A DNA stretch of 64,000 nucleotides, taken from contig NZ_CP051216.1 of assembly GCF_012516435.1 (NCBI RefSeq), positions 1,366,001-1,430,000 on the forward strand. The letters run 5' to 3'. Source of the DNA: Pseudodesulfovibrio sp. zrk46 (lineage in GTDB: Bacteria > Desulfobacterota > Desulfovibrionia > Desulfovibrionales > Desulfovibrionaceae). Below, in pieces: positions 21,175 to 28,797 of this stretch. The translations under genes were made by a program, and so were the position numbers. The notes under the pieces are model-generated. The model worked only from the letters and a program-made list of their open reading frames with translations. It made no database searches and was not told the origin of the DNA. Each line of letters starts with the position of its first letter. Positions within the stretch are counted from its first letter, which is position 1.

Positions 21175-21402
21175 TATATAAGTATGATTGTGAGAGGCTC
21201 CGAAGCCATGGTTTAGCGTGTATTCATACCTGCTATTAAACGAGAAAACAAACCGTTGATAATTGGTTGTGACAGTGTCTGTTTCAGATGCATTAAAAAC
21301 GATGCTCGATGATTTTTCAGCAAAGAAAAATTATATTTTTGTGAATCCGACGCTATAGGCAGATCTGTTTTTACCAATGATTCAAGGTTGATTACAACCA
21401 AA

Positions 21403-21420
21403 ACTGAGTGTACACTCAGT
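21403..21420. promoter_or_regulatory. TetR-type operator, copy 1
   Basis: ACTGAGTGTACACTCAGT, a perfect palindrome extending to 22 bp at 21401-21422. The same half-sites recur 68 bp downstream. It lies between the divergent GGDEF and TetR genes. Confidence 0.7.
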
Positions 21421-21433
21421 TTCGGTGATTTTT

Positions 21434-21439
21434 TTGACA
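21434..21439 (+). promoter_or_regulatory. Possible -35 element of the TetR-SulP operon
   Basis: TTGACA lies between the two operators. The matching -10 is imperfect (TACTAA at 21458-21463, spacer 18). Confidence 0.4.
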
Positions 21440-21470
21440 TTATAACGAATTAGCGACTACTAACAAAATA

Positions 21471-21488
21471 ACTGAGTGACCACTCGGT
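21471..21488. promoter_or_regulatory. TetR-type operator, copy 2
   Basis: ACTGAGTGACCACTCGGT matches copy 1 with the same 8-2-8 layout and one half-site change. It lies 25 bases before the tetR start codon, where a bound dimer would block the promoter or early elongation. Confidence 0.65.
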
Positions 21489-21512
21489 TTTTGCAAAGGA
21501 TGGATTGAAGCG

Positions 21513-22097
21513 ATGAAAAAAAAGGACGCCATACTCAAAGTTGCCACGGTGCTGTTCGCCAACAAAGGGTTTGTGGACACATCGGGACAGGAGCTGTCTC
21601 GCCTGACTGGCGCGGCAGAAGGTACCATTTTTTATCACTTCAAAAACAAGGAAGGACTGCTCCTCGCAATACTGGAAAAGACCAGGGAGGAGATCGTGGA
21701 GCAGTTTGAACAGTTCTTTGAGAACCGTCCCTTCAAGTCGGGCATGGAAATGGTGGAGGAGGTGGTATCCTTCCATCTCTACCTGGCCGGTTTGATGGAA
21801 GACAAATTTCTGCTGCTGCACAGGCACTTTCTCTACAAGTTTTCGGAGTCGAATCCGGAGTTCAGGGAGAACCTGGAGGCGATTTACAACTGTCTGGTCG
21901 ACATTTTCGAGGAGGCAATTGCTGCAGGGCAGGAAGACGGATCGATTACCAAGGAACTCCATCCACGCAAGACCGCGCTCATTCTGTTTACAATGGTCGA
22001 TGGTCTGATTCGTTTCAAAAACTACAATCTGTATGACGCTGGCGCTTTGTTCAATGAATTGATGAATACGTGCCGCCGAATGTTGCAGGCTAATTAG
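21513..22097 (+). CDS. TetR-family regulator of the SulP operon
   Basis: A 194-residue TetR protein. The helix-turn-helix spans residues 10-50 (ILKVATVLFANKGFVDTSGQ, LTGAAEGTIFYHFKNKEGLL), with the invariant F-Y-x-F-x-x-K. The C-terminal ligand and dimer domain is helical and not assignable to a ligand. Two palindromic operators in front of the gene imply autoregulation, and the stop codon is 12 bases before the SulP start, so it should also set expression of the whole downstream run. Confidence 0.92.
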   Translation: MKKKDAILKVATVLFANKGFVDTSGQELSRLTGAAEGTIFYHFKNKEGLLLAILEKTREEIVEQFEQFFENRPFKSGMEMVEEVVSFHLYLAGLMEDKFLLLHRHFLYKFSESNPEFRENLEAIYNCLVDIFEEAIAAGQEDGSITKELHPRKTALILFTMVDGLIRFKNYNLYDAGALFNELMNTCRRMLQAN

Positions 22098-27249: not shown

Positions 27250-27586
27250 CGACGAGGTGGAGCTGGTCTCCGCCATGGCAGAACGCCTCTCCCTGAGAGG
27301 GCTGGATGTGGACTGGACCGACAGTGGGGTCAAGGCCCTGCAAATGGCTCAGGGCTGTGTCTACGACGTGGCCGTGCTGGACATGAAAATGCCCAAGCTC
27401 AGCGGACTGGAGCTCAGACGGCTTATTTCCGAGAAGTGTCCGGACATGAAATTCATTTTCCTCTCCGGCCATGGGTCGGAAGCGGATTTCAAGGCGGGTT
27501 GCAAAGAAGCAGCCAGCTACCTGATCAAGCCCGTGAGTCTTGAAGATCTCATGGCCCAAATTCAGGAATGCGGTTGTAAAGGATAA
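27230..27586 (+). CDS. Single-domain response regulator
   Basis: A 118-residue receiver with all catalytic residues: DD at positions 7-8, phosphoacceptor Asp51 in VAVLDMKMPKLSG, Ser in FLSGHGSE, and Lys in LIKPVS. No output domain. It starts inside the last codons of the kinase gene, so the two are translationally coupled. It should act as a phosphate shuttle or sink, or bind a target protein directly. Confidence 0.93.
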   Translation: MKILLVDDEVELVSAMAERLSLRGLDVDWTDSGVKALQMAQGCVYDVAVLDMKMPKLSGLELRRLISEKCPDMKFIFLSGHGSEADFKAGCKEAASYLIKPVSLEDLMAQIQECGCKG

Positions 27587-27596
27587 GGAGACGATC

Positions 27597-28223
27597 ATGG
27601 ACAGCACCATGGACAATCACGAAAGCCTGCGTTTTTTCGGCAAGGTAAGCGCTTCGGTCTCTCACGAGATCAAGAACGTGTTCGCGGTCATCAACGAAGC
27701 CGCCGGTCTGTTGGGGGACTTGACTCTGATGGCTGAGCGAGGCATGGAGCTTGACCCCGAACGTCTCAAACGCGTGGCCTCCTCCATTCAGGGGCAGGTG
27801 CAGCGTGGCGATACCATCGTGAAGAACATGAACCGCCTGGCCCATTCCACGGATGAAGCCGACCTTGAGGTGGAATTGCCTCAGATGGTGGAGCTGGCCG
27901 TGGCCCTGTGCACCCGCATGGCTGACATGCGCCAGATGCACCTCTCCATTGGCGAGTGCGTTCCCACCAGAGTGGTGGTGAGCCCCTTCGCCCTGATCCA
28001 GCTGTTGCACACCGCCACTGCCCAGGCTCTGGACAAGATGAGCCCGCAGGCAACACTGGTCTATTCCGTGACTGAAGATGCAATCGTCCTGTCTGTACCG
28101 GGGCAGGGCATAGAACTAACCGCCGACGCCGCCATTGATGCGCTTGCCGCCAGCATGGGCGTGACGGTTGTTCCCAATACACAAGACGGCACCCTTGAGC
28201 TGGGGTTCAATCGAGCCGCCTAA
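27597..28223 (+). CDS. ChpT-like histidine phosphotransferase (degenerate kinase)
   Basis: A 208-residue protein with a HisKA-type H-box (SASVSHEIKNVFAVINEA) followed by an ATPase-like fold without its nucleotide residues: the N-box Asn is replaced in ALIQLLHTATAQALDK, and the G1 box lacks Asp (SVPGQGIELT). This is the pattern of ChpT-type dimeric phosphotransferases rather than active kinases. AAGGAG with 6-base spacing marks the ATG at 27597. Sitting between two single-domain REC genes, it is a plausible relay between them. There is no membrane segment or sensor domain. Confidence 0.75.
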   Translation: MDSTMDNHESLRFFGKVSASVSHEIKNVFAVINEAAGLLGDLTLMAERGMELDPERLKRVASSIQGQVQRGDTIVKNMNRLAHSTDEADLEVELPQMVELAVALCTRMADMRQMHLSIGECVPTRVVVSPFALIQLLHTATAQALDKMSPQATLVYSVTEDAIVLSVPGQGIELTADAAIDALAASMGVTVVPNTQDGTLELGFNRAA

Positions 28224-28265
28224 GATAAAACATACCAAGCTTTATTATTTTAAGGAGAAATCCCA

Positions 28266-28694
28266 ATGGCAGAAAAAGTATTGCTCATCGACGACGAAAC
28301 CGAATTCCTGGAATCCCTGTCTGAACGCATGCGTCTGCGTGGTATGAACGTCAATACCGCTGAAACCGCCGACCGCGCCGTGAGTGCCATCGACGAATCC
28401 GACTACGACGCCATCGTGCTCGACCTGCAGATGCCTGACATGAACGGCATTGAAATGCTCAAGATCATCCGTAAGTCCCGCCCGGACATGCAGGTTATCC
28501 TGCTCACCGGTCAGGCCACCCTGGAGGCTGGCATCGAGGCCATGAAGCTCGGCGCCATGGACTTCATGGAAAAACCCGCCAACATCGACACCCTCACCGA
28601 GAAGATCAAGAAGGCACAGGCCAAAAAGATGGTTCTCGTTGAGCAGAAGACCGAAAAGAAGGTCCGTTCCATTCTCAGCAGCAAGGGGTGGTAA
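28266..28694 (+). CDS. Single-domain response regulator
   Basis: A 142-residue receiver: acidic pair in LLIDDETEF, phosphoacceptor Asp53 in IVLDLQMPDMNG, Thr in LLTGQATLEAG, Lys in FMEKPANID. A 20-residue charged tail follows (KTEKKVRSILSSKGW), with no DNA-binding domain. AAGGAGAAATCCC precedes the ATG. It is the last gene of the TetR-SulP-phosphorelay run and closely resembles the receiver part of the protein at 24255. Confidence 0.93.
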   Translation: MAEKVLLIDDETEFLESLSERMRLRGMNVNTAETADRAVSAIDESDYDAIVLDLQMPDMNGIEMLKIIRKSRPDMQVILLTGQATLEAGIEAMKLGAMDFMEKPANIDTLTEKIKKAQAKKMVLVEQKTEKKVRSILSSKGW

Positions 28695-28768
28695 GCCACT
28701 CTATCCTCGATACTCCCAAGAAGTTGCACGCATGGCCACTCCTCCCTTCCGGCCATGCGCGAGGGAAG

Positions 28769-28797
28769 GGCTCCGGTTGATCCGGGGCCCTTTTTTC
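28769..28797 (+). terminator. Terminator of the TetR-SulP-phosphorelay operon
   Basis: A 9-bp stem (GGGCTCCGG / CCGGGGCCC, one G-U pair) with a 5-base loop and six T. No comparable structure occurs between 21513 and here, consistent with one long transcript. Confidence 0.8.

What the first reader, a model, noticed from the sequence alone, without database searches (positions are those of the whole stretch)
21401..28797. TetR-controlled operon joining a SulP permease to a complete multi-step phosphorelay
Seven same-strand genes with gaps or overlaps of 42 bases or less, no internal terminator, and one terminator at the end: TetR, SulP-STAS permease, kinase-like/BON-like/REC protein, Cache HEINNPL kinase, REC, ChpT-like phosphotransferase, REC. 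No DNA-binding output is present, so the relay may act on the transporter itself, for example through the REC protein and STAS domain. I infer anion sensing coupled to post-translational control of uptake.
Basis: partly seen in the sequence, partly recalled or inferred. Interest (0 to 1): 0.72.

Follow-up and report, generated by a model that had tools for sequence, protein, structure and literature searches.

The report
Phosphorelay-adaptor operon for sulfate transporter
Sulfate-respiring bacteria carry a conserved operon that ties a sulfate transporter to a complete signalling relay with no gene-switching output of its own, and the relay's odd adaptor protein recurs beside unrelated sulfur-anion transporters, so the relay probably controls the transporter itself.

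Summary
In detail: seven genes (TetR, SulP, Cytidylate_kin2-BON-REC = CKR, Cache kinase, REC, phosphotransferase, REC), gaps of at most 42 bp, and a strong terminator. TetR has two operator palindromes, unique in the genome; similar sites precede TetR in 90 of 103 usable regions.

New here: CKR is the constant part. With REC it lies within 6 kb of a SulP, DASS/CitMHS or TauE/SafE transporter in 115 of 122 full-context loci; without REC in 0 of 12. Partner labels need at least 7 changes on a quick 78-row tree. SulP has about 130 extra residues, inferred periplasmic. AprA occurs in 33 of 37 CKR genomes and 86 of 259 others.

The sulP cluster is published (PMC11887813) and read there as PhoRB-like transcriptional control; here no receiver has a DNA-binding domain. 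Best reading: a sulfate-sensing phosphorelay whose adaptor gates sulfur-oxyanion transport post-translationally. The link to transport is well supported; gating is inferred.

The parts
21403..21420 (.). TetR operator O1 ACTGAGTGTACACTCAGT (perfect palindrome)
   Evidence: O1 and O2 are the only pattern hits with 0-1 mismatch in the 4.08 Mb genome; similar sites upstream of TetR in relatives
21434..21463 (+). Possible promoter: TTGACA (21434-21439), 18 bp, TACTAA (21458-21463)
   Evidence: read by eye; weak -10, not found by the scan; inference only
21471..21488 (.). TetR operator O2 ACTGAGTGACCACTCGGT
   Evidence: sites cluster at about -30 to -60 and -105 to -120 before TetR in relatives
21513..22097 (+). 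TetR-family repressor, 194 aa
   Evidence: TetR_N 2.1e-11; present in 40 of 43 full-context GTDB loci
22110..24236 (+). SulP/SLC26 transporter with STAS, 708 aa
   Evidence: TIGR00815 sulP 443 bits over cut-off 380 while DauA and BicA models fall far below theirs; best solved relative AtSULTR4;1
22779..23192 (+). Insert of SulP (residues ~224-361), inferred periplasmic TM7-TM8 loop: helical hairpin plus four strands; N247, R304, R308, W341, N347 invariant
   Evidence: blocks of residues 231-360 at pLDDT 69-88; model as a whole poor, 56; 160 residues where AtSULTR4;1 has 33; conservation 30 of 30
23841..24155 (+). STAS domain of SulP
   Evidence: PF01740 1.6e-17
24204..24224 (+). C-terminal tail CPLTTVC; C-P-L invariant in 30 of 30
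24255..25472 (+). CKR: Cytidylate_kin2-like (res 3-167) + BON-like (~200-275) + REC (285-394)
   Evidence: Cytidylate_kin2 and REC in 28 of 28 homologues, BON in 1 of 28
25498..27249 (+). dCache sensor histidine kinase, 583 aa
   Evidence: H358, N477, D506, G508, G510 and G532-S538 invariant in 101 sequences
27230..27586 (+). RR1, stand-alone receiver
   Evidence: D7, D8, D51 in all 96 and K100 in at least 93%
27597..28223 (+). HPT: DHp-type phosphotransferase with degenerate CA fold, phospho-His H23
   Evidence: HisKA in 38 of 41 homologues and no HATPase_c match at E up to 0.1; H23 invariant in 41; model pLDDT 94.7; matches HK853, DivL
28266..28694 (+). RR2, stand-alone receiver, 142 aa
   Evidence: D9, D10, D53, K103 in at least 93% of 86
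28757..28801 (+). Intrinsic terminator, 20-bp hairpin
   Evidence: z -4.39, 0 of 200 shuffles as stable

Best explanation
This is a TetR-repressed operon of sulfate-respiring bacteria in which a sulfate transporter is made together with its own control relay. Proposed steps: (1) TetR sits on O1/O2 and represses its own operon [inferred from unique, conserved operators]. (2) The dCache kinase, perhaps with the periplasmic insert of SulP, senses external sulfate or transporter state [inferred]. (3) Phosphate passes kinase -> RR1 -> HPT -> RR2 and the receiver of CKR [residues shown conserved; route and direction inferred]. (4) CKR, the constant neighbour of the transporter, is the output: its cytidylate-kinase/BON-like part binds the transporter's cytoplasmic face (in SulP, the STAS domain) or a nucleotide and changes transport activity when its receiver is phosphorylated [inferred]. 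CKR, usually with kinase and receivers, also accompanies DASS/CitMHS-type and TauE/SafE transporters in relatives [shown as gene association], so it is a general sulfur-oxyanion transport controller, not a SulP part.
For: SulP directly upstream of CKR in 43 of 43 full-context GTDB loci, and all six partners in 32 of 43. CKR with REC near one of the transporter families in 115 of 122 full-context loci versus 0 of 12 for CK without REC; in L186-L245, fetched as CKRs not beside SulP or by likeness to the CKRs of L186 and L191, 32 of 37. Partner label on the CKR tree needs at least 7 changes, TauE set one clade with SH-aLRT 100. Pfam names of swapped transporters: TauE 6e-34, Na_sulph_symp 2e-41, CitMHS 4e-80. 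In 32 phylum genomes the 6 long SulPs (718-853 aa, split Pfam match) each adjoin a CK gene with a ~410-aa frame and none of the 9 others adjoins a listed PF13189 gene (compared by eye). Insert-SulP and CKR-like matches: 32 genomes with both, 6 and 5 with one, 253 with neither. AprA in 33 of 37 CKR genomes versus 86 of 259 others. No DNA-binding domain besides TetR. SulP reported as abundant and constitutively formed in Desulfosarcina variabilis (PMC11887813 section 14), which leaves room for control of activity.
Against: No measurement of transport, phosphotransfer or binding. No complex could be modelled; the SulP membrane part folded poorly (mean pLDDT 56). PMC11887813 proposes transcriptional control and in its conclusion links SulP formation to high sulfate; a DASS-type cluster does carry a PAS-sigma54 activator (tested in L225). 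RR1, HPT or RR2 is missing at some loci, and L172 shows only SulP-CKR with a short kinase-like fragment. Six of 38 genomes with the insert carry no CKR match, four of 37 CKR genomes show no AprA over cut-off, and seven full-context CKR loci have no listed transporter nearby. Loci were picked by similarity to known CKRs, and the GTDB scan kept the best 80 of 186 relatives, so related loci are over-represented; counts are not corrected for ancestry.
Confidence: 0.5

Rival explanations
1. PhoRB-like transcriptional control: the Cache kinase senses sulfate and the receivers, through a partner encoded elsewhere, switch transporter synthesis; TetR adds a second level (model of PMC11887813).
For: Published model (section 14). 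TetR and operators exist. A DASS-type cluster encodes a sigma54 activator with PAS (L225).
Against: No receiver in the SulP operon carries a DNA-binding domain; the WalR/YycF model matches only the receiver part of CKR (residues 284-395). The SulP is reported as constitutively formed. The transcription factor differs between cluster types (TetR versus, in L225, a sigma54 activator) while CKR stays.
Confidence: 0.25
2. The transporter is the sensor: SulP flux, read through its periplasmic insert and CKR, drives the kinase, and the output acts on other targets (metabolism, chemotaxis) through diffusible RR1/RR2.
For: Insert domain with invariant Arg/Asn/Trp co-occurs with CKR; RR1 and RR2 are single receivers free to diffuse. 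Transporter-sensor couples such as DctA/DcuS are known (recalled).
Against: The DASS partners of L191 and L192 match their Pfam profile without a comparable gap; some CitMHS-type partners do hold an inserted TrkA_C domain (L214, L241), not examined further. RR2 is absent from some operons.
Confidence: 0.17
3. Mere co-regulation: TetR co-expresses a transporter and an unrelated stress relay.
For: One operon with one TetR.
Against: CKR stays beside sulfur-anion transporters even where no TetR is seen and the transporter family is different.
Confidence: 0.08

Closest known systems
sulP and DASS gene clusters of Desulfobacteraceae (PMC11887813, Sci Adv 2025)
   Same: SulP transporter, two-component genes, Cache kinase, TetR and an upstream palindrome; a parallel DASS cluster with two-component and CBS genes; reported in Dv. 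salexigens too (section 14). Its Fig. 5D legend also mentions putative protein-protein interactions in the model; the figure itself is not held, so between which proteins is not known here.
   Different: The main text has 0 hits for cytidylate, phosphorelay, post-translational and insertion (supplements and figures not seen), and it calls the regulators WalR-type acting on promoters. Here no receiver has a DNA-binding domain, CKR is shown to be the shared part, and a TauE type is added.
Group Ci SulP of sulfate reducers (PMC5840216)
   Same: About 710 aa with an insertion; A or S at P156 of the PXYGLY motif in the majority of a group, as here (PAYYGLY) (passages).
   Different: Paper gives about 90 aa and an extra transmembrane helix; here about 130 extra residues, predicted as a soluble helical hairpin plus strands. 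'kinase' and 'response regulator' occur 0 times in it. That this SulP belongs to group Ci is inferred, not tested.
ChpT / Spo0B phosphotransferases
   Same: DHp two-helix domain with phospho-His and a CA-like fold without HATPase match.
   Different: Foldseek ranks kinases (HK853, DivL) first; ChpT and Spo0B were not in the 50 rows shown of 670 matches.
Transporter-kinase couples (DctA/DcuS, BceAB/BceS, CbrA, PstSCAB/PhoR; recalled)
   Same: Transporter and sensor kinase work as a unit.
   Different: Those end in a DNA-binding regulator; here the operon's relay ends in stand-alone receivers and a CK-BON-REC adaptor.

Membership tests
SulP/SLC26 sulfate permease (TIGR00815) | Score over curated cut-off plus STAS | tested here: met
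   443 bits vs 380; STAS 1.6e-17
SulP/SLC26 sulfate permease (TIGR00815) | Transports sulfate | not testable with these tools
   no transport data; AtSULTR4;1 nearest solved relative
BicA or DauA transporter | Score over curated cut-off of the equivalog model | tested here: not met
   BicA 144 vs 880, DauA 229 vs 614 bits
Multi-step phosphorelay | Kinase with H, N, G boxes; receivers with DD/D/K; separate phosphotransferase His | tested here: met
Multi-step phosphorelay | Phosphate passes between these proteins | not testable with these tools
   needs purified proteins
ChpT-like phosphotransferase | DHp + CA-like fold without ATP-site match | tested here: met
   no HATPase_c match in 41 members
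ChpT-like phosphotransferase | Nearest fold is ChpT/Spo0B rather than kinases | tested here: inconclusive
   kinases and kinase-like proteins fill the 50 rows shown; second aligner not available
WalR/PhoB-type response regulator (published label) | DNA-binding output domain | tested here: not met
   receiver-only Pfam matches in RR1, RR2 and CKR's C-terminus; YycF model covers CKR 284-395 only
Cytidylate kinase (catalytic) | Cytidylate_kin2 family match | tested here: met
   28 of 28 homologues
Cytidylate kinase (catalytic) | Glycine-rich P-loop near the N-terminus (recalled motif) | tested here: inconclusive
   no such motif seen by eye in the first 30 columns of alignment A4; motif recalled, activity untested
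BON domain | Pfam cut-off | tested here: not met
   window E 0.11, 13.3 bits vs 27; 1 of 28 homologues at 0.0014

The most novel reading that the evidence does not exclude
CK-BON-REC is a transferable, phosphorelay-driven gatekeeper: a receiver protein that docks on unrelated sulfur-oxyanion transporters (SulP, DASS, TauE/SafE) and sets their activity, integrating outside sulfate (Cache, SulP insert) with an inside nucleotide signal such as ATP or adenosine phosphosulfate read by the cytidylate-kinase-like part. It would be a general way by which sulfate-respiring bacteria throttle their first, energy-costly step without changing gene expression.
Probability: 0.3. Interest if true: 0.82.

Novelty: new variant of a known kind. 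Interest (0 to 1): 0.62.

Why it matters
How sulfate uptake is controlled in sulfate reducers is open: in D. vulgaris, none of the three SulPs is essential for sulfate transport (PMC5840216 passage) and a triple SulP mutant still respires sulfate (PMC7531388 passages), though whether that strain has this operon was not tested here. [quoted passage not shown] A named adaptor with a phosphorylatable Asp, found across the phylum and beside several transporter families, makes the question directly testable by one deletion and one point change. It also questions, for this operon, the published view that the regulators act on promoters.

Tried and rejected
Tried without result: Rfam and tRNA scans of the window (nothing). 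Foldseek with the SulP model: the 50 rows shown are SLC26/SulP-family entries or prestin STAS domains; the membrane part of the model is too poor to place the insert, so topology rests on alignment to AtSULTR4;1, loop charges and recalled SLC26 topology. The HPT fold search did not separate ChpT/Spo0B from kinases. Literature searches (for most hits only the listing was seen) showed no report of the CKR protein; the one closely related report is PMC11887813 (found).

Rejected: bicarbonate or dicarboxylate transporter; a wider TetR regulon, because the 16 further genome hits, with 2-3 mismatches, do not exceed the 21 of the reversed-pattern control; 'insert only with CKR', because L196, L197 and L199-L202 hold insert-like SulPs at about 39-49% identity without a CKR match.

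Rows dropped or biased: one search counts only loci with at least 3.3 kb up and 5.3 kb down of CKR (family set: 58 loci given, 57 with an anchor, 55 counted; GTDB set: 80 given, 43 counted); 14 of the 55 are CK paralogs at 25-47% identity without the operon. The family loci are not every place listed. The GTDB scan kept 80 of 186. The tree used 78 of 176 CKR rows, a quick method, 26 of 75 inner branches open, one very long branch (L082); rows without a same-strand transporter were left out of the change count. One search used 103 of 107 upstream regions and mononucleotide shuffles; its regex can count one site twice.
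Full report
Observation. The window is G000:C1:1366001-1430000 of a one-contig 4.08 Mb genome; the closest named CKR relatives are labelled Pseudodesulfovibrio. The seven ORFs are as described, with Pfam matches for each, gaps of 12, 18, 25, -20, 10 and 42 bp, and a strong hairpin terminator at 28757-28801.

Conservation. A search with the CK-BON part found matches in 59 of 199 genomes of the family. Of 58 family loci examined, 57 have a CKR anchor and 55 full context; 41 of these have TetR, SulP, kinase and HPT around CKR and 34 have all six partners; the other 14 are CK paralogs at 25-47% identity. 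Among 80 named GTDB loci (best 80 of 186), labelled with Desulfovibrionaceae, Desulfobacteraceae, Desulfobulbaceae and other names and including one contig labelled Gammaproteobacteria, 43 have full context: SulP 43, TetR 40, kinase 41, RR1 38, HPT 38, RR2 37, all six 32. So SulP-CKR is the fixed core, and RR1, RR2 and HPT are the parts sometimes lost.

TetR. Two near-identical palindromes flank a possible promoter at 21403-21420 and 21471-21488. In the whole genome the pattern has no other hit with 0-1 mismatch, and the 16 further hits with 2-3 mismatches do not exceed the control's 21. A palindrome of this type occurs in 90 of 103 usable upstream regions of relatives versus a mean of 2.7 in mononucleotide shuffles (listing); 13 regions have none. 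TetR thus most likely controls mainly its own operon.

Relay. The kinase keeps its H box, N box and G boxes in 101 sequences. RR1 (n=96) keeps D7, D8 and D51 in all rows and K100 in at least 93%; RR2 (n=86) keeps D9, D10, D53 and K103 in at least 93%. The CKR receiver keeps D289, D290, D333, T361 and K383 in 28 of 28. HPT has an invariant H23 in 41 of 41, HisKA in 38 of 41 and no HATPase_c match. Its model (pLDDT 94.7) has a DHp hairpin and a CA-like fold like HK853 and DivL, and it aligns with the operon's own kinase (28% over 151 residues, E 3e-9). No receiver has a DNA-binding domain; the WalR/YycF model matches only the receiver part of CKR.

Transporter. SulP passes the sulfate permease model and fails BicA and DauA; the nearest solved relative is the Arabidopsis sulfate transporter AtSULTR4;1. 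Residues 202-361 stand where AtSULTR4;1 has 33 residues, about 130 extra, at the place of the TM7-TM8 loop. A positively charged TM6-TM7 loop precedes it, which with recalled SLC26 topology puts it in the periplasm. Residues 231-360 are predicted as a helical hairpin plus four strands (block pLDDT 69-88, in a model of mean 56); N247, R304, R308, W341 and N347 are invariant in 30 of 30, as is a C-terminal CPL. In 296 phylum genomes insert-SulP occurs in 38, CKR-like in 37, both in 32 (Fisher 1e-31), and 28 of 39 insert-SulPs have CKR directly downstream; three of the other 11 (G353, G450, G298) lie at contig ends. Six genomes have the insert without CKR; their SulPs are more distant, and some sit by universal stress or hydrogenase-like genes. 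Co-occurrence counts are not corrected for shared ancestry.

Transporter exchange. CKRs not beside this SulP proved most informative. In L186, L187, L206 and L244 TetR-CKR-kinase, then HPT and/or a receiver, is followed by TauE/SafE; in many others the order is CKR-RR2-(~175 aa, a CBS protein in L225, where tested)-DASS, often with CitMHS; in L214, L240, L241 and L242 CKR-kinase-RR1-HPT(-RR2) is followed by a CitMHS/DASS-like transporter (Pfam tested in L214, L241, L242); L207 (with a CBS protein, tested) and L210 have both SulP and DASS; in L082 a CK paralog precedes a SulP of 551 aa without the insert. Overall 115 of 122 full-context CKRs with REC have one of these transporters within 6 kb, against 0 of 12 CK proteins without REC. 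On a quick 78-row CKR tree the partner label needs at least 7 changes, some being additions of a second transporter; the TauE type is one clade (SH-aLRT 100) beside SulP types. The shared theme of SulP, DASS and TauE/SafE is sulfur oxyanions (family knowledge; DASS/CitMHS also carry carboxylates). CKR genomes are enriched for AprA, 33 of 37 versus 86 of 259.

Prior work. PMC11887813 (section 14 read and passages seen; figures and supplements not seen) reports the sulP cluster with two-component genes, TetR and palindrome, and a DASS cluster with two-component and CBS genes, notes very similar Cache domains and proposes sulfate as effector and promoter action as output; its figure legend also names putative protein-protein interactions. 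PMC5840216 (passages) describes ~710-aa group Ci SulPs with an insertion. PMC7531388 (passages) shows a D. vulgaris SulP triple mutant still respires sulfate. A review of transporter activity control (PMC10710835, term search only) has no hit for SulP, STAS, receiver domain or two-component.

Interpretation. Shown: operon, conservation, operators, relay residues, no DNA-binding receiver, CKR-transporter association across three transporter groups, link to sulfate reducers. Inferred: sulfate as signal and substrate, relay order, and CKR as a post-translational gate. The constant CKR with changing transporter, and with TetR in some clusters and a sigma54 activator in another (L225), argues that the relay's target is the transporter protein rather than a promoter.

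Noticed in passing
window 24204-24224: SulP ends in CPLTTVC; C-P-L invariant in 30 of 30 homologues and the last Cys in 25 of 30; a possible docking or redox tail.
   Followed up: partly
L199 (5078-7372), L201 (953-3244): Insert-bearing SulPs without a CKR match sit among genes that look by eye like [NiFe]-hydrogenase and maturation genes.
   Followed up: no
L196, L197, L200, L202: Insert-bearing SulPs without a CKR match; the L197 neighbour is a universal stress protein (PF00582); neighbours of L196, L200 and L202 were not tested.
   Followed up: partly
L009 4397-8676: Own-genome CK paralog (443 aa, BON-like part apparently repeated, no receiver match) next to a kinase and an NtrC-like regulator.
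   Followed up: no
L010, L011: Two further own-genome loci with a kinase 32-33% like this one followed by three stand-alone receivers.
   Followed up: no
L225 and similar loci L223, L231, L234: DASS-type CKR clusters: in L225 a CBS protein and a PAS-sigma54 activator; by likeness a NifX-like protein (reference L189 itself below the Pfam cut-off) before another kinase.
   Followed up: partly
window 19807-21174 (-), 18271-19425 (-): CHASE4-GGDEF protein and an HD_5 protein upstream, opposite strand.
   Followed up: no
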